Assembly: GCF_022763305.1 (NCBI RefSeq)
Contig: NZ_JALEGT010000055.1
Location: 124,001-188,000 of the forward strand
Origin: Marivita sp.
Lineage (GTDB): Bacteria; Pseudomonadota; Alphaproteobacteria; Rhodobacterales; Rhodobacteraceae
DNA: 64,000 bases
Direction of reading: 5' to 3'
Part shown: in pieces, positions 25,891 through 34,114 of the stretch
How positions within the stretch are numbered: the first letter of the stretch is position 1
Layout: each line of letters starts with the position of its first letter
Position numbers and translations under genes: made by a program
The notes under the pieces: model-generated
Databases searched by the model: none
Told to the model about the DNA's origin: nothing
Seen by the model: the letters and a program-made list of their open reading frames with translations, nothing else

Positions 25891-25919
25891 TTGACAGCTT
25901 CACTCAGGCTTCTTAGAAT
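25891..25919 (+). promoter_or_regulatory. iscR-suf operon promoter, near sigma-70 consensus
   Basis: TTGACA (25891-25896) and TAGAAT (25914-25919) with the ideal 17-nt spacer, the best promoter match in the window. It lies about 100 nt before iscR and its -10 hexamer is contained in the Irr-like palindrome at 25913-25927. The leader also holds a perfect 6-bp hairpin (CGGGGG at 25930, CCCCCG at 25940) and an inverted repeat at 25967-25990. Confidence 0.8.
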
Positions 25920-25927
25920 GGTTCTAA
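25913..25927. promoter_or_regulatory. Irr-box/ICE-like operator over the iscR -10
   Basis: Perfect palindrome TTAGAA-TGG-TTCTAA. It matches the iron-control-element (Irr box) pattern known in Rhizobiales and Rhodobacterales, where the heme-sensing regulator Irr acts under low iron. It covers the -10 TAGAAT, so bound Irr should block RNA polymerase. The match to the motif is seen; binding by Irr is inferred. Confidence 0.75.
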
Positions 25928-26017: not shown

Positions 26018-26476
26018 ATGAAACTGAGTACCAAAGGACGCTATGCGATGGTCGCTCTCGCCGATATCGCGCTGCAGCCCGAAGGCACGTTGGTGACACT
26101 GGGCGATATTGCCCAGCGGCAGGATATTTCACTGCCCTATCTCGAGCAGTTGTTCGTCAAGCTGCGGCGCGCCGGATTGGTGACGTCGGTACGCGGCCCC
26201 GGTGGCGGGTACCGGCTGGCCAAGGCGGCCAGCGATATTCGCGTGGTCGATGTTCTGGGCGCTGTCGACGAGACGGTGGACGCGATGCACAAGGGGGCGG
26301 GGGCCTCGGGTGGTCTGTCGGGCAGCCGGGCGCAATCCATGACCAACCGGTTGTGGGAAGGTCTGTCGGCGCATGTCTATGTGTTCCTGCACCAGACGCG
26401 CCTGTCGGATGTGGTGGGCAATTCGCTGGCACCCTGTCCGGCGGTGCCGAACCTCTTTGCCGTGGTGGACGAGTGA
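26018..26476 (+). CDS. iscR: Rrf2 family Fe-S regulator IscR
   Basis: Transcription factor controlling Fe-S cluster assembly. From ATG 26018 (MKLSTKGRYAMVAL) the product is 152 aa with an Rrf2 winged helix-turn-helix (DIAQRQDISLPYLEQLFVKL, GPGGGYRL). The three cysteines that hold the cluster in E. coli IscR are absent: residues 90-104 read MHKGAGASGGLSGSR, and the only cysteine is Cys140. This matches the atypical one-cysteine IscR described for Rhodobacter sphaeroides. First gene of the isc-suf operon, behind a strong promoter with an Irr-like box. Confidence 0.95.
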   Translation: MKLSTKGRYAMVALADIALQPEGTLVTLGDIAQRQDISLPYLEQLFVKLRRAGLVTSVRGPGGGYRLAKAASDIRVVDVLGAVDETVDAMHKGAGASGGLSGSRAQSMTNRLWEGLSAHVYVFLHQTRLSDVVGNSLAPCPAVPNLFAVVDE

Positions 26477-26589: not shown

Positions 26590-27633
26590 GTGGGGCGGGT
26601 GTATCTGGATCACAACGCGACCACGCCGCTGCGTCCCGAGGCGCGTGCGGCAATGATCGCGGCGATGGATGTGGTGGGCAATCCGTCCTCGGTCCATGCC
26701 GAGGGGCGCGCGGCAAAGGCGCTTTTGGAGCGTGCGCGGGCGCAGGTGGCGCAGGCGTTCGGCGCGGATGGGGCGGATGTGGTCTTTGTCTCGGGGGCCA
26801 CCGAGGCGGCGGCGCTGGCCTGTGCCGGGCGCGGGCTGGTCGGGGCCGAGATCGAGCATGATGCGGTGCGGGCCTGGATCGATCCGGTGCTGGCGGTGGA
26901 TGCCGCGGGGCAGGTGTCCGTGACCGCGCCGGAGAACACGGCGCTGCAACTGGCCAATTCCGAGACCGGGATCGTGCAGGACCTGCCGCCGGGATTGGCC
27001 GTGGTGGATGCGACGCAGGCCTTTGGCAAGCTGCCCGTGGCCTTCAACTGGCTGGGCTGCGAGATGGCCCTGATTTCGGCGCACAAGCTTGGGGGACCCA
27101 AGGGTGTCGGCGCGTTGGTGATGAAGCGCGGGACCGATCTTGCGGCGCAGATCCGGGGCGGTGGGCAGGAGATGGGCCGCCGGTCCGGGACGGAGAACGT
27201 GATCGGGATTGCCGGATTCGGGGCTGCGGCCGAGGCGGCGGCGCGCGATCTGGATCACGGGATCTGGGATGAGGTGGAAAAACTTAGAAACATTCTAGAT
27301 TCGGCTATTGAGGCTGACGCTAAAGAGACTATTTTTGTCGGGAAAGATGCGAGGCGCCTGCCGAACACGACCTGTTTTGCAACCCCCGGCTGGAAGGGGG
27401 AGACTCAGGTGATGCAGATGGACCTCGCCGGTTTTGCGATCAGCGCCGGGTCCGCCTGTTCGAGCGGCAAGGTGAAGGCCAGCGCGGTGTTGACGGCGCT
27501 GGGGTTCGATACGGCCACCGCCAGCAGCGCGATCCGCGTGTCGCTGGGGCCGCAGACAACCGAAGACGACGTGATGCGGTTTGCCGAAACCTGGCAGGCC
27601 AAACGACAGAAACACCGCGCGCGGGCCGCGTGA
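26590..27633 (+). CDS. Cysteine desulfurase, NifS/IscS type
   Basis: PLP enzyme delivering sulfur from cysteine to cluster assembly. The 347-aa product (GTG start at 26590, YLDHNATTPL) has the PLP lysine Lys166 in SAHKLGGPKG and the mobile-loop catalytic Cys290 in SAGSACSSGK, a group I loop. It is shorter than E. coli IscS (404). The operon also encodes the group II enzyme sufS. Codons 231-250 (27280-27339) are A/T-rich and atypical and contain an Irr-like motif; see that entry. sufB follows after 24 nt. Confidence 0.93.
   Translation: MGRVYLDHNATTPLRPEARAAMIAAMDVVGNPSSVHAEGRAAKALLERARAQVAQAFGADGADVVFVSGATEAAALACAGRGLVGAEIEHDAVRAWIDPVLAVDAAGQVSVTAPENTALQLANSETGIVQDLPPGLAVVDATQAFGKLPVAFNWLGCEMALISAHKLGGPKGVGALVMKRGTDLAAQIRGGGQEMGRRSGTENVIGIAGFGAAAEAAARDLDHGIWDEVEKLRNILDSAIEADAKETIFVGKDARRLPNTTCFATPGWKGETQVMQMDLAGFAISAGSACSSGKVKASAVLTALGFDTATASSAIRVSLGPQTTEDDVMRFAETWQAKRQKHRARAA
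27280..27339. promoter_or_regulatory. A/T-rich patch inside nifS with Irr-like box and possible internal promoters
   Basis: Of 20 codons here, 14 end in A or T, including AGA and CTA, against GC-rich codons on both sides. It contains TTAGAA-ACA-TTCTAG (27284-27298). Read on the minus strand, TAGAATGTTTCTAA matches the iscR -10/Irr box (TAGAATGGTTCTAA) at 13 of 14 bases. A sense promoter candidate, TTGAGG-16 nt-TATTTT (27308-27335), lies about 320 nt before sufB. Internal sense and antisense promoters are reported for the Rhodobacter isc-suf operon; that this patch is one is inference. Confidence 0.55.
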
Positions 27634-27657: not shown

Positions 27658-29181
27658 ATGGCTGCTTTGGATAATGTGACCGTCAAGGAAGGCGTGGATC
27701 AGGAAACCGTCGAAGCGGTGCGCCAGGTCGGTGGCAAGTACAAGTACGGCTGGGACACCGATATCGAGATGGAGTACGCGCCGAAGGGGCTGACCCCGGA
27801 CATCGTACGTCTGATCTCTGAAAAGAACGACGAGCCGGAATGGATGACCGAGTGGCGTCTGCAGGCCTATGAGCGCTGGCTCCAGAAGGAAGAGCCGACG
27901 TGGGCGATGGTTGAATACCCCGAGATCGACTTTCAGGACCAGTATTACTATGCGCGACCCAAAAGCATGGAGACCAAGCCCAAGTCGCTGGACGAGGTCG
28001 ATCCCAAGCTGCTGGCGACCTATGAAAAGCTGGGTATTCCGCTCAAGGAGCAGATGATCCTTGCTGGGGTCGAGGGGGCCGAGGATGCGCCGGCCGAGGG
28101 CCGCAAGGTGGCGGTCGATGCGGTATTCGACTCCGTCTCCGTCGGCACGACCTTCCAGAAGGAACTGAAAGAGGCGGGCGTGATCTTCTGTTCGATCTCG
28201 GAGGCGATCAAGGAGCATCCGGAGCTGGTCAAGAAGTACCTGGGGTCCGTGGTGCCGGTGTCGGACAACTTCTATGCGACACTGAACAGCGCGGTTTTCT
28301 CGGACGGCTCGTTCGTCTACGTCCCGCCGGGGGTGCGCTGCCCGATGGAGCTGTCGACTTATTTCCGGATCAACGCGGAAAACACCGGGCAGTTCGAACG
28401 CACGCTGATCATTGCGGACAAGGGATCCTACGTGTCCTACCTTGAAGGGTGCACAGCGCCGCAGCGCGACACCGCGCAGCTTCATGCGGCGGTGGTCGAG
28501 ATCATCGTCGAGGAAGACGCCGAGGTGAAATATTCCACCGTCCAGAACTGGTATCCGGGTGACGAGAACGGCAAGGGTGGCATCTACAATTTCGTGACCA
28601 AGCGCGCAGACTGCCGGGGCGACCGGGCGAAGGTGATGTGGACACAGGTCGAAACCGGCTCTGCCGTGACGTGGAAATACCCGTCCTGCATCCTGCGCGG
28701 TGATGACAGCCAGGGCGAGTTTTATTCGATCGCCATCGCCAACAACATGCAGCAGGCCGATACCGGCACGAAGATGATCCATCTGGGCAAGAACACCAAG
28801 AGCCGGATCGTGTCGAAAGGCATCAGCGCGGGCAAGGCGCAGAACACCTATCGGGGTCTGGTGTCGATGCACCCGAAGGCCAAGAACAGCCGGAACTATA
28901 CCCAGTGCGACAGCCTGCTGATCGGTGACAAGTGCGGGGCACATACGGTTCCCTATATCGAGGTGAAGAACAACTCGAGCCGAGTCGAACACGAGGCGAC
29001 CACATCCAAGGTGGATGACGATCAGCTGTTCTACTGCCGCCAGCGCGGCATGGACGAGGAAGAGGCCGTGGCGCTTGTCGTCAACGGGTTCTGCCGCGAT
29101 GTGCTGCAGGCGCTGCCGATGGAGTTTGCCATGGAGGCGCAACAGCTTGTGGCGATCTCGCTTGAAGGGTCCGTGGGTTAA
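27658..29181 (+). CDS. sufB: Fe-S cluster scaffold subunit SufB
   Basis: Core of the SufBC2D scaffold, receiving sulfur and iron to build clusters. 507 aa with the conserved SufB blocks [36 protein letters not shown], and the C-terminal beta-helix region [16 protein letters not shown] with the cysteine in [14 protein letters not shown]. Length is normal (E. coli 495). GGGGG precedes ATG 27658. An 8-bp hairpin without T-run follows at 29193. Confidence 0.97.
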
Positions 29182-29786: not shown

Positions 29787-30541
<755 letters not shown>

Positions 30542-30542
<1 letters not shown>

Positions 30543-31819
30543 TGGCGTTGCCGCAGATCAAACAGGACGCCACGGACGCGCGGTTGGCCGCGCTTGAGAT
30601 GCCCCAGGGCGGCTGGGCGCAGGCGGCGCGCGAAGACGCGATTGCGCGGGTGCGCAGCATGGGTCTGCCAAGCGGTCGGGACGAGTATTGGAAATACACG
30701 CGCCCGGACACTCTGGTGCAGCCCGAGGCCCCCAAGGCAGCCCTTCTCGAAACCGACGAAGCGCCGATCTTCGGCGAGGTGGACCGGCTCAAGATCGTGT
30801 TCATCGACGGTGTGTTCAGCGCCGAGGAGTCGGATGATCTCGCGATGGAGCATGTCAGCATCGACCGTCTGGCCGATGCGCGGGACATTCACTGGGCCAA
30901 GGACGTCTATGGCGTGCTTGAAGCCCGCGGGCAATCTCCGGTGCAGCGCCCCTTGGCGGCGCTGAACACGGCGTTCGCCACCGATGGGCTGCTGATCCAT
31001 GTCACGGGCACCGCGCCCAAGCCGATCAGCCTGATTTATCGCCATGAATCAGAGGTTTCTGATGCGATCCTCCACCATGTCGTGAAGATCGACGCAGGTG
31101 CCGAACTGACGCTGCTGGAGAACGGCCCGGCTGCGGCGCGCTTCAACAAGTGCATGGAGGTCGAGATCGCGGATGGCGGTACGTTCCACCATGTCCGTGC
31201 ACAGGGGCGTGACCATGAACGTCGTGCCGTGACGGCCATTTTCACCCGGTTGGGTGAGGAATCGGTGTTCAAGTCCTTCACCCTGACGGCCAACGGTGTG
31301 CTGACGCGGAACGAATGCGTGATCGAGCTGACCGGCGACAATGCGACCGCGCACGTGGCCGGGGCCTGTGTGGGTGACGGCGACTTCCACCATGACGACA
31401 CGGTGTTCATCACCCATGACGCGCTGAACTGCGAAAGCCGTCAGGTGTTCAAGAAAGTGCTGCGCAACGGTGCAACGGGCGTATTCCAGGGGAAAATCCT
31501 TGTGAAGGAAGGCGCGCAGAAGACCGACGGCTACCAGATCAGCCAGTCGCTGCTGCTGGACGAGGACAGCCAGTTCCTCGCCAAGCCGGAGCTTGAAATC
31601 TACGCGGACGACGTGGCCTGTTCGCACGGCTCGACATCCGGTGCGATCGACGAGGAGGGCCTTTTCTACCTGCGCTCGCGCGGGATCGAAGAGGGGCCGG
31701 CGACGGACCTGCTCACCATCGCCTTCCTTGCCGAAGCCGTCATGGAGATCGAGGACGAAGCCCTGCAGGACGAGATCAACGGCCGTGTCGAGGCGTGGCT
31801 GTCACGGCGGCGCGGCTGA
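30542..31819 (+). CDS. sufD: Fe-S assembly protein SufD
   Basis: SufB paralogue that pairs with it in SufBC2D. The 425-aa product has the beta-helix core with SSFT-like strands and the conserved C-terminal end YADDVACSHGSTSGAIDEEGLFYLRSRG (listed here in parts: YADDVACSHGSTSG, then EEGLFYLRSRG), including the functional His in the SHGST segment. I take ATG 30542, overlapping the sufC stop by 1 nt; a GTG one codon earlier is possible. Confidence 0.95.
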
Positions 31820-31825
31820 GCGGAG

Positions 31826-32314
31826 ATGCCCTTCACGCAGGATATCGCGGCCACGTATCGCGGGCCGGGCAAGGTTGTGCGCCGTCTGGTGAATGCCGGA
31901 CAGCGCGAGGACCGGGCCTTGGCCATCCTGATGGGGGCCTGTGCGATCCTGTTCATTGCCCGATGGCCTGCCTTGGCGCGTCAGGCGCATCTGGAAGGGC
32001 TTGAACTGAACATGCTGTTGGGCGGCACGCTCATGGCGACGCTGTTCCTGGCCCCGTTGCTGTTCTACGCGCTGGCCTTTGTGGCGCATCTGATCGCGCG
32101 GGCGGTTGGCGGCAAAGGTCCGTCCTTCAATGCACGGATTGCCCTGTTCTGGAGTCTCTTGGCCTCGTCCCCGCTGATCCTGCTGAACGGGCTGGTGGCT
32201 GGCTATATCGGCGCGGGCATTCAGTTGACCATCGTGGGTCTGATCTGGTTCTGCGTGTTCATGTGGTTCTGGATCGCGGGCATGCTGTCCGTGTATCGCG
32301 GAGGCGCTGCGTGA
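31826..32314 (+). CDS. Yip1-like integral membrane protein, 162 aa
   Basis: Polytopic membrane protein of the Yip1-like domain type, role unknown. An N-terminal cytoplasmic segment (MPFTQDIAATYRGPGKVVRRL) precedes about four hydrophobic helices, around residues 31-47, 63-90, 106-130 and 136-155. It starts 6 nt after sufD and overlaps the next membrane gene by 4 nt. Such genes occur in the suf operons of related bacteria, as far as I recall, but no function in cluster assembly is established. Confidence 0.8.
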   Translation: MPFTQDIAATYRGPGKVVRRLVNAGQREDRALAILMGACAILFIARWPALARQAHLEGLELNMLLGGTLMATLFLAPLLFYALAFVAHLIARAVGGKGPSFNARIALFWSLLASSPLILLNGLVAGYIGAGIQLTIVGLIWFCVFMWFWIAGMLSVYRGGAA

Positions 32315-32901
32315 CGATTGCGGGGTTCTTCCGGCTGGCGGTGAACACCGTTGTCGCCCCGCGCGATGTCGCCCGGCTGCTTCTGGCGATGAACCTGCCG
32401 TCGCAGGCGCTCTGGCTGGCCTTTGCGCTGGTGATCGTGCTCAACACGCTGATGTTCTCGGTCTCGCTGTTGCTGGTTCCGGCGGATGATATGTTCGGCC
32501 CGGTGCTCGCCAGCCCGACCGTGTTCGGCACCATGTTGGGCCTCTCGGTCGGCGCTTTGATCGTGGCGGTGACCCTGTGCGGTCGTCCGCTGGGCGGTAC
32601 GGCAAGCTTTGCGCAGATCGCCATTCTGGTGATCTGGCTGCAGGCGTTGCGGGTCCTGATGCAGGGCGTGGTGGCCGTGCTGGGGCCGGTGAGCCTGTTC
32701 CTGTCGGGGGTCGTGATCAGTGCCGCGTCGGTGCTGGGCATCTGGATCTTCGTCAATTTCATTGATGTGGCCCATGAGACCGGCAGCCTGCTGCGCGCAG
32801 GTTTGGTCTTGTTGCTGGCCGTTGTCGGCATGATGCTGGGGCTGAGTCTGATCTTCAGCCTTCTTGGCGTCCAGACCGGAGGAATACCTGGATATGTATG
32901 A
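32311..32901 (+). CDS. Yip1-like integral membrane protein, 196 aa
   Basis: Second membrane protein between sufD and sufS. I place the start at GTG 32311, overlapping the preceding stop by 4 nt (GTGA); an in-frame ATG at 32263 would overlap by 52 nt. The product begins MTIAGFFRLAVNTVVAPRDV, then has about five hydrophobic helices. The repeated 'domain then APRDVARLLLAMNLP' entry helix is typical of bacterial Yip1-like proteins. It overlaps sufS by 8 nt. The two genes probably form a membrane pair; role unknown. Confidence 0.78.
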   Translation: MTIAGFFRLAVNTVVAPRDVARLLLAMNLPSQALWLAFALVIVLNTLMFSVSLLLVPADDMFGPVLASPTVFGTMLGLSVGALIVAVTLCGRPLGGTASFAQIAILVIWLQALRVLMQGVVAVLGPVSLFLSGVVISAASVLGIWIFVNFIDVAHETGSLLRAGLVLLLAVVGMMLGLSLIFSLLGVQTGGIPGYV

Positions 32902-34114
32902 CGTCACCGAGATCCGCCGCGATTTCCCGATCCTGTCGCGCGAGGTGAATGGCAAGCCGCTGGTCTATCTCGACAACGGGGCCAGCGCGCAGAAGCCTCA
33001 GGTGGTGATCGACGCGATCACCCGCGCCTATGCCGAGGAATACGCCAACGTCCATCGCGGGCTGCATTACCTGTCGAATCTCGCGACCGAAAAGTACGAG
33101 AGCACGCGGGGGGTGATCGCCAAGTTCCTTGGTGTGAAGGACGAAGACGAGATCGTCATGAACACCGGCACCACGATGGGGATCAACACCGTGGCTTATG
33201 GCTGGGGGATGCCGAACCTGCAGGCGGGGGACGAGATCATCCTGTCGGTGATGGAGCATCACGCCAATATCGTGCCCTGGCATTTCCTGCGCGAACGTCA
33301 GGGTGTGGTGATCAAGTGGGTCGATGTGGACAGCACCGGCTATCTGGACCCGCAGGCGGTGATCGACGCGATGGGGCCAAAGACCAAGCTGGTCGCGGTC
33401 ACGCATCTGTCCAACGTGCTGGGCACGGTTGTCGATGTGAAAACCATCTGCGAGGCCGCGCGGGAGCGTGGGATTGCCACGCTGGTCGATGGATCTCAGG
33501 CGGCGGTGCACATGCCCGTCAATGTCGAGGAGATCGGCTGCGATTTCTACGCCATCACGGGGCACAAGCTGTACGGTCCTTCGGGGTCTGGTGCAATTTA
33601 CATGCGCAAGGCGCGGATGGCCGAGATGCAGCCTTTCCTTGGCGGTGGGGACATGATCCGCGAGGTCCACAAGGACGAGATCACCTGGAACGACGCGCCG
33701 ATGATGTTCGAGGCGGGCACTCCCGGCATCGTGCAGCAGATCGGGCTTGGTGTCGCGCTCGACTACATGATGGGGATCGGGATGGAGAACATCGCGGCCC
33801 ACGAGAAAAAGCTGCGCGACTATGCTCGCGCGCGTCTGGACGGCCTGAATTGGCTGCAAGTGCAGGGTACAACGCCTGACAAGGCGGCAATCTTCAGTTT
33901 CACGTTGGATGGCGCCGCGCATGCGCATGACATCTCGACCATTCTGGACAAGAAAGGGGTCGCGGTGCGGGCGGGGCAGCATTGCACCGGGCCGCTGATG
34001 GAACATCTGGGCCTGACCGCCACCTGCCGCGCCTCGTTCGGGATGTACAACACGGAAGAAGAAGTGGACATATTGGTGGATGCGCTCGAACTGGCGCATG
34101 ATCTATTTGCCTGA
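32894..34114 (+). CDS. sufS: Cysteine desulfurase SufS
   Basis: Group II cysteine desulfurase supplying persulfide to the SUF scaffold. From ATG 32894 (MYDVTEIRRDFPIL) the product is 406 aa, exactly the E. coli length, with PLP Lys225 in ITGHKLYGPSG and catalytic Cys364 in RAGQHCTGPL. A GGAGGA ribosome site precedes this ATG by 10 nt, which decides it over an ATG 30 nt upstream. No sufE or sufU is next to it; a sulfur-acceptor gene must lie elsewhere. Confidence 0.96.
   Translation: MYDVTEIRRDFPILSREVNGKPLVYLDNGASAQKPQVVIDAITRAYAEEYANVHRGLHYLSNLATEKYESTRGVIAKFLGVKDEDEIVMNTGTTMGINTVAYGWGMPNLQAGDEIILSVMEHHANIVPWHFLRERQGVVIKWVDVDSTGYLDPQAVIDAMGPKTKLVAVTHLSNVLGTVVDVKTICEAARERGIATLVDGSQAAVHMPVNVEEIGCDFYAITGHKLYGPSGSGAIYMRKARMAEMQPFLGGGDMIREVHKDEITWNDAPMMFEAGTPGIVQQIGLGVALDYMMGIGMENIAAHEKKLRDYARARLDGLNWLQVQGTTPDKAAIFSFTLDGAAHAHDISTILDKKGVAVRAGQHCTGPLMEHLGLTATCRASFGMYNTEEEVDILVDALELAHDLFA

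What the first reader, a model, noticed from the sequence alone, without database searches (positions are those of the whole stretch)
27280..27339. Codon-atypical A/T-rich patch in nifS carrying a near copy of the iscR Irr box
Fourteen of 20 codons end in A/T, including AGA and CTA, in a gene that is otherwise GC-rich in third position. The patch contains TTAGAA-ACA-TTCTAG. Read on the minus strand, TAGAATGTTTCTAA agrees with the iscR promoter's TAGAATGGTTCTAA at 13 of 14 bases, so the resemblance covers the -10 as well as the palindrome. A sense promoter candidate (TTGAGG-16-TATTTT) lies in the same 60 bases. Internal sense and antisense promoters are known in the Rhodobacter isc-suf operon. 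Here protein coding appears to have been bent to keep a regulatory site.
Basis: partly seen in the sequence, partly recalled or inferred. Interest (0 to 1): 0.75.

Follow-up and report, generated by a model that had tools for sequence, protein, structure and literature searches.

The report
Conserved iron-regulated promoter inside iscS
Inside a gene for an iron-sulphur cluster enzyme lies what looks like a second, iron-regulated on-switch for the genes downstream; it is kept so strictly in a large family of bacteria that it has dictated part of the enzyme's own amino-acid sequence.

Summary
Window 27280-27339 in iscS/nifS has 14 of 20 codons ending in A/T, against 55 of 327 elsewhere in the gene. 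It holds an Irr-like palindrome, a TTG (-35) and TATTTT (-10). It is not chance: in 90 distinct related iscS genes, 82 use AGA and 82 use CTA at the same two codons. A model of the element hits 312 of 394 genomes of the family, drawn from 393 genera.

It matches a promoter already described in Rhodobacter sphaeroides: P3 inside iscS, with an Irr site ~50 nt upstream of the start and an IscR site around the start, both gel-shifted (PMC6956336).

New here: family-wide conservation; the box goes with Arg-Asn-Ile/Val where boxless relatives mostly have Arg-Asp; the box changes state repeatedly; and 11 near-complete genomes without a detectable irr have no intact internal box (two decayed), while the ten with enough upstream sequence also lack the iscR-promoter box. 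Function in this organism is inferred.

The parts
25891..25919 (+). iscR promoter: TTGACA-17-TAGAAT
   Evidence: sequence; counterpart of P2 in PMC6956336 by position
25913..25927 (+). Irr-like box over the iscR -10, TTAGAATGGTTCTAA
   Evidence: a box here in 158 of 168 loci with enough upstream sequence, up to 1 mismatch (sample not random)
26018..26476 (+). iscR (Rrf2 family; IscR model hit is below its curated cut-off)
26590..27633 (+). iscS/nifS, cysteine desulfurase of NifS/IscS type (hits below the curated cut-offs)
27280..27345 (+). patch conserved at nucleotide level: P3-like element
27284..27298 (+). internal Irr box TTAGAAACATTCTAG, centre 27291
   Evidence: R. sphaeroides site TTAGAAATATTCTAGA differs from the window at 1 of 16
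27308..27313 (+). -35 element TTGAGG (TTG conserved)
   Evidence: TTG in 112 of 119 box-bearing genes
27330..27335 (+). -10 element TATTTT
   Evidence: exact in 116 of 119 box-bearing and 10 of 35 boxless genes
27327..27341 (+). putative IscR box GACTATTTTTGTCGG
   Evidence: 14 of 15 with R. sphaeroides GACTATTTCTGTCGG; nothing else within 3 mismatches in the window, the iscR promoter included
27341..27341 (+). inferred transcription start of P3 (A27331 taken as -10)
   Evidence: inference from the P3 description
27658..29181 (+). sufB, first gene downstream of the internal promoter
29787..34114 (+). further downstream genes of the operon, named sufC (29787), sufD (30539) and sufS (ORF 32864-34114) from recall, with other ORFs between
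   Evidence: ORFs; gene names recalled; sufS-like match at this place

Best explanation
The patch is the counterpart of promoter P3 of the R. sphaeroides isc-suf operon: a sense sigma-70-type promoter inside iscS that gives the suf genes a transcript of their own besides that from the iscR promoter. Irr binds the palindrome about 50 nt upstream of the start and damps the rise of suf expression in iron shortage; IscR binds around the -10/start and represses. Shown here: the sequence, its nucleotide-level conservation, its spread, an irr gene in this genome, and co-loss of boxes with irr. Shown elsewhere, in R. sphaeroides: start site, promoter activity, Irr and IscR binding. Inferred: that this holds in this Marivita-like organism. 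The DNA site overrules codon choice and two amino acids: it must read TT-AGA-A over codons 232-234 and TT-CTA over 235-236, which rules out the usual Asp at 234 and the usual CGC and CTG codons.
For: Codon constraint at the patch far above the rest of four genes. Element in 312 of 394 family genomes and 160 of 196 order genomes; exact box-9-TTG-19-TATTTT architecture with at most 1 mismatch in 202 of 394, reversed control 0 in the 394 rows. Same motifs, place and spacing as experimentally mapped P3. Box and TATTTT go together: 116 of 119 against 10 of 35. Irr gene present and above the Irr model cut-offs. Element in 303 of 368 genomes with Irr and 9 of 26 without; among genomes at least 90% complete 274 of 328 against 6 of 19. 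In R. sphaeroides suf genes are higher in an irr mutant (PMC3413700 passages).
Against: No transcript data for this organism. The R. sphaeroides genome itself was not fetched; identity with P3 rests on motifs and distances printed in the paper. In R. sphaeroides P3 shows no significant iron response in wild type and Irr effects are about 2-fold. At least 25 genomes have irr but no internal box, so the box is dispensable. Six genomes without a detected irr keep an exact internal box (all fragmented, 71-96% complete). Seven of 168 loci have the internal but not the iscR box. Whole-genome motif count is not above control. The proposed IscR motif has no like at the iscR promoter.
Confidence: 0.88

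Rival explanations
1. Irr bound inside iscS acts mainly as a roadblock to read-through from the iscR promoter, setting the iscS:suf ratio, rather than through P3.
For: The box lies inside the transcribed gene. A few genomes keep the box with a spoiled -10: 3 of 119 lack exact TATTTT, and G155 and G211 keep the box with ATTATCTGG or ATTATTTTC in place of ACTATTTTT. In R. sphaeroides the Irr effect is stronger when the upstream promoters are present.
Against: Box and TATTTT are tightly associated (116 of 119 against 10 of 35), and P3 is a proven promoter in R. sphaeroides.
Confidence: 0.06
2. The patch is a minus-strand (antisense) promoter like that of iscR.
For: TAGAAT on the minus strand; antisense promoters exist in this operon in R. 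sphaeroides (P4, P5).
Against: 0 of 119 box-bearing genes have a minus-strand TTG at 15-18 nt (40 at 19 nt); P4 and P5 lie in and before iscR, not in iscS.
Confidence: 0.02
3. The patch is conserved for the protein, for mRNA folding or translation speed, or is a foreign A/T-rich insert.
For: Rare codons and low GC3 in the patch.
Against: Synonymous choices are fixed against the genes' own usage (4.6 and 4.8 excess bits); the protein is poorly conserved at codons 238-246 (pair identity 0.22-0.52); the pattern coincides with a known operator and promoter. RNA folding was not computed.
Confidence: 0.02

Closest known systems
Promoter P3 of the Rhodobacter sphaeroides isc-suf operon (Nie, Remes, Klug 2019, PMC6956336; abstract, sections 3.2, 3.5, Discussion, legends and passages seen)
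   Same: Inside iscS, sense strand; Irr site 15 of 16 identical at about -50; IscR motif 14 of 15 identical around the start; TTG and an A at -10; suf genes downstream.
   Different: Another genus; start and binding not measured here; in that text I found synteny, but no promoter conservation, discussed.
Irr boxes / ICE at mbfA and ccpA in R. sphaeroides (PMC3413700, passages seen)
   Same: Irr-bound palindromic sites near promoters; at ccpA the start lies about 40 nt downstream.
   Different: Those are upstream of genes; this one lies in coding sequence.
Intragenic binding sites in E. coli: sigma-54 (PMC4591121, abstract and outline seen) and PhoB (PMC10294691, abstract and one section seen)
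   Same: Sites inside genes; some sigma-54 sites are conserved promoters with long 5' leaders.
   Different: PhoB sites are reported inert and not conserved; here operator and promoter together are kept in most sampled genera of a family and change the protein.

Membership tests
P3 promoter of the isc-suf operon | Position inside iscS, reading toward suf | tested here: met
P3 promoter of the isc-suf operon | Irr site about 50 nt upstream of the start | tested here: met
   15 of 16 identical; 50 nt to the inferred start; the start itself is inferred
P3 promoter of the isc-suf operon | TTG around -34 and A at -10 | tested here: met
P3 promoter of the isc-suf operon | IscR site around the start | tested here: inconclusive
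   14 of 15 identical, binding not testable here
P3 promoter of the isc-suf operon | Measured transcription start and promoter activity | not testable with these tools
   needs dRNA-seq and a reporter
Irr-regulated site | Palindrome TTAGAAN3TTCTAR | tested here: met
Irr-regulated site | irr gene in the genome | tested here: met
   198.9 and 197.6 bits, cut-offs 150 and 170
Irr-regulated site | Site missing where irr is missing | tested here: inconclusive
   9 of 26 against 303 of 368; 0 of 11 exact in irr-less genomes at least 97% complete, but 6 fragmented irr-less genomes keep an exact internal box
Irr-regulated site | Irr binding | not testable with these tools
   gel shift exists only for R. 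sphaeroides
Antisense promoter | Minus-strand -35 at 15-18 nt from TAGAAT | tested here: not met
   0 of 119

The most novel reading that the evidence does not exclude
Irr sets the balance between the iscRS and suf parts of the operon through two boxes at two geometries: one over the iscR -10, one at -50 inside iscS that also hinders read-through. Selection on this switch has overruled the protein code of a housekeeping enzyme in most sampled genera of the Rhodobacteraceae. Irr then does act at the iscR promoter in vivo, contrary to the negative gel shift.
Probability: 0.2. Interest if true: 0.65.

Novelty: new member of a known kind. Interest (0 to 1): 0.45.

Why it matters
Intragenic regulator sites are mostly reported as poorly conserved noise (PMC10294691, one section). 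This is a clear opposite case: a promoter with its operator kept inside coding DNA in about four fifths of sampled genera of a family (312 of 394 genomes), at a visible cost in codons and amino acids, and missing more often where its regulator is missing. It turns a one-organism observation (P3 in R. sphaeroides) into a family trait, offers with/without pairs inside one genus, and reopens whether Irr acts at the iscR promoter.

Tried and rejected
Antisense promoter: rejected on spacing and conservation. Replacement box elsewhere where the internal one is missing: besides the iscR box none (up to 1 mismatch) in the flanks held of the boxless loci. Absence of the internal box explained by absence of irr: only in part; 25 of the 30 genomes have irr but no internal box. 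Internal translation start in the P3 leader (SD-like 27395-27402, ATG 27412): codon 270 is GGG in 20 of 154, so not kept. Constraint from a P4-like promoter inside iscR: no window above 0.28 bits, at the gene start. Whole-genome motif count: not above control. Class sample: 14 of 190 match; 12 are outside the family, E 2.7e-4 to 9.6e-3, mostly partial; I take them as chance, though they are more than the nominal expectation. One listed family member there (G226) has no match. Residue 234 against the box on independent pairs of the tree (7 pairs; usually 5-6 the same way, 0-1 the other; median P 0.03): not used as evidence, because the box itself dictates the codon. Pfam on L112:1517-2086 and on a frame of L115 gave nothing.

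Full report
What is there. The window is from a Marivita-like member of the Rhodobacteraceae: most of the closest named matches are Marivita records, and its genome G000 has 16 relatives of its genus in the set. The locus reads alpha/beta hydrolase (minus strand), iscR, iscS/nifS, sufB, then further suf genes (sufC, sufD, sufS named from recall). The iscS and iscR model hits are below NCBIfam's curated cut-offs; the Irr hits are above theirs. In iscS, codons 231-250 have 14 of 20 third bases A/T, against 55 of 327 in the rest of the gene. They hold TTAGAAACATTCTAG (27284-27298) and TTGAGG-16-TATTTT (27308-27335).

Is it chance? No. I aligned iscS codon by codon in 98 loci. One short piece (L018) was dropped; 90 were distinct. 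At Arg233, 82 of 90 use AGA; at Leu236, 82 of 90 use CTA. Against each gene's own codon use this is 4.6 and 4.8 bits of excess surprise. The best 20-codon windows here average 1.10 excess bits; windows of the gene clear of the patch average -0.07, maximum 0.09. With 12-codon windows over the hydrolase, iscR, iscS and sufB (1,147 windows) the patch reaches 1.77 and the other three genes at most 0.36, at gene starts. The loci were picked by protein likeness, so they lean to close relatives.

How widespread? Of the 90, 84 could be placed for the motif table: 76 with AGA and CTA, 8 without; 6 were left out because the patch string was not found in the locus as read. From the 76, 48 diverse copies gave a sequence-only model of 69 positions. 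It hits 312 of 394 family genomes, drawn from 393 genera, and 160 of 196 in the order sample. In the class sample it hits 14 of 190; the two strong ones are the window's genome and another family member. An independent pattern of box, 9 nt, TTG, 19 nt, TATTTT with at most one mismatch is found in 202 of 394, its reversed control in none. One listed match (G152) looks unlike the rest and may not lie in iscS; the list was cut, so I did not see every match.

What it is. Nie, Remes and Klug (PMC6956336; abstract, sections 3.2, 3.5, Discussion, legends and passages seen) mapped in R. sphaeroides a promoter P3 within iscS whose transcripts span the suf genes; they call it the strongest sense promoter. 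It has an A at -10 and TTG around -34. An Irr site TTAGAAATATTCTAGA lies about 50 nt upstream of the start, with Irr binding shown by gel shift. An IscR-like motif GACTATTTCTGTCGG lies around the start, with IscR binding shown by gel shift. Lack of IscR raised P3 2.5- to 2.8-fold. P3 did not respond significantly to iron in wild type; in the irr mutant it was 2-fold higher in iron depletion than in repletion. A Fur/Mur mutant lowered it under iron depletion, thought indirect. In the window the same motifs sit at the same spacing: the box centre is 50 nt from the start inferred by taking A27331 as -10. I did not fetch the R. sphaeroides genome. A full-text search for that box string finds only this paper. 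Searches for Irr with iscS, Rhodobacteraceae, internal promoter and suf and for Roseobacter, iscR, Irr, suf operon and transcription start site listed no paper whose title or abstract start treats the element in other genera; only open papers were searched.

The coding is bent. The box imposes TT|AGA|A on codons 232-234 and TT|CTA on 235-236. Among 154 distinct iscS genes, the 119 with the box (up to 1 mismatch) have Asn234 in 114 and Ile or Val235 in 119; the 35 without have Asp234 in 32 and Leu235 in 18. This set is not random: 30 genomes were chosen mostly for lacking the element and other loci for having it. The difference follows from the DNA demand itself, so it shows the cost and is no independent test of function. 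On a quick iscS tree made without the patch, the box changes state at least 15 times, 7 forced by well-supported branches; the tree cannot tell gain from loss and has one long branch. In genus g56, of seven genomes that I picked for partial or full model hits, two have the box and five do not.

Two layers. Some boxless genes keep the -10 region: TATTTT is exact in 10 of 35, against 116 of 119 with the box, and several boxless genes keep the longer ACTATTTTTGTCGGGAAA. So the promoter and IscR part can exist without the Irr box.

Test of the regulator. An Irr match at E 1e-30 or better is present in 368 of 394 family genomes. The element model hits 303 of these 368 and 9 of the 26 others (Fisher P 4e-7); among genomes at least 90% complete, 274 of 328 against 6 of 19 (P 2e-6). 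Six of the 26 names were read off from gaps in the printed list. Of the 26, iscS was found in 25 and its patch was readable in 22. Eleven of them are at least 97% complete: none has an exact internal box; G183 has one with one mismatch and G125 one with two. None of the ten with enough upstream sequence has an iscR-side box with up to 1 mismatch (G075 has a two-mismatch site). In some of these the best iscS match is only 42-52% identical, and I did not check that it lies in the isc-suf operon. By contrast, all 27 irr-bearing genomes keep an iscR-side box (two with one mismatch), though 25 of them lack the internal one. Against this: eight genomes without a detected irr keep an exact box at one or both places (six the internal one); all eight are fragmented and 71-96% complete, so irr may simply be missing from the assembly. 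The irr-less genomes may be few lineages; I built no species tree. In the wider set, 158 of 168 loci with enough sequence have an iscR-side box; 7 have only the internal one and 3 neither. Those 3 are genomes of genus g24 with no Irr orthologue, where 46 of 50 genomes have one.

The core idea is right: a regulatory site has overruled codon choice. The minus-strand promoter is not supported: none of 119 genes has a minus-strand TTG at 15-18 nt, 40 have one at 19 nt, and TAGAAT is built into the palindrome. In R. sphaeroides Irr bound P3 but not the iscR promoter in vitro (PMC6956336; PMC3413700 passages), so on present data the internal box is the better proven Irr target; the absence of both boxes in near-complete irr-less genomes suggests that the iscR box is real too.

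The small set in this genome. TTAGAANNNTTCTAR occurs exactly at four places in G000: this one, the iscR promoter, between a peroxidase-family gene (katG-like) and a LysR-type gene, and before an Nfu-like gene. The Nfu hit is below the curated cut-offs, and katG and oxyR are names from recall.

Verdict. Counterpart of a known promoter, hence a new member of a known kind, with family-wide conservation and a coding cost that I did not find described in the searches named. Function in this organism is inferred.

Noticed in passing
window 25913-25927: The iscR-promoter Irr box is present in all 27 irr-bearing genomes, and none with up to 1 mismatch was seen in the ten near-complete irr-less genomes with enough sequence, although Irr did not bind this promoter in vitro in R. 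sphaeroides.
   Followed up: partly
L111:1501-1515: Exact Irr box between a peroxidase-family gene (katG-like) and a divergent LysR-type gene (oxyR-like) in the same genome.
   Followed up: partly
L112:1501-1515: Exact Irr box just before an Nfu-like Fe-S gene, hit below the curated cut-offs.
   Followed up: partly
L207 and L213 (G183, G125): Genomes without a detected irr carry decayed versions of the internal box, one and two mismatches.
   Followed up: partly
window 27395-27414: SD-like AGGGGGAG before in-frame ATG codons in the P3 leader; the SD-like codon is not kept in relatives.
   Followed up: yes
L019 (G005:C91): Second cysteine-desulfurase-like stretch, 42-52% identical to iscS, in a 650-codon open frame.
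   Followed up: no
G197, G424, G456, G477, G490 and others: A few genomes have two matches to the element model; a second operon copy or contamination was not examined.
   Followed up: no
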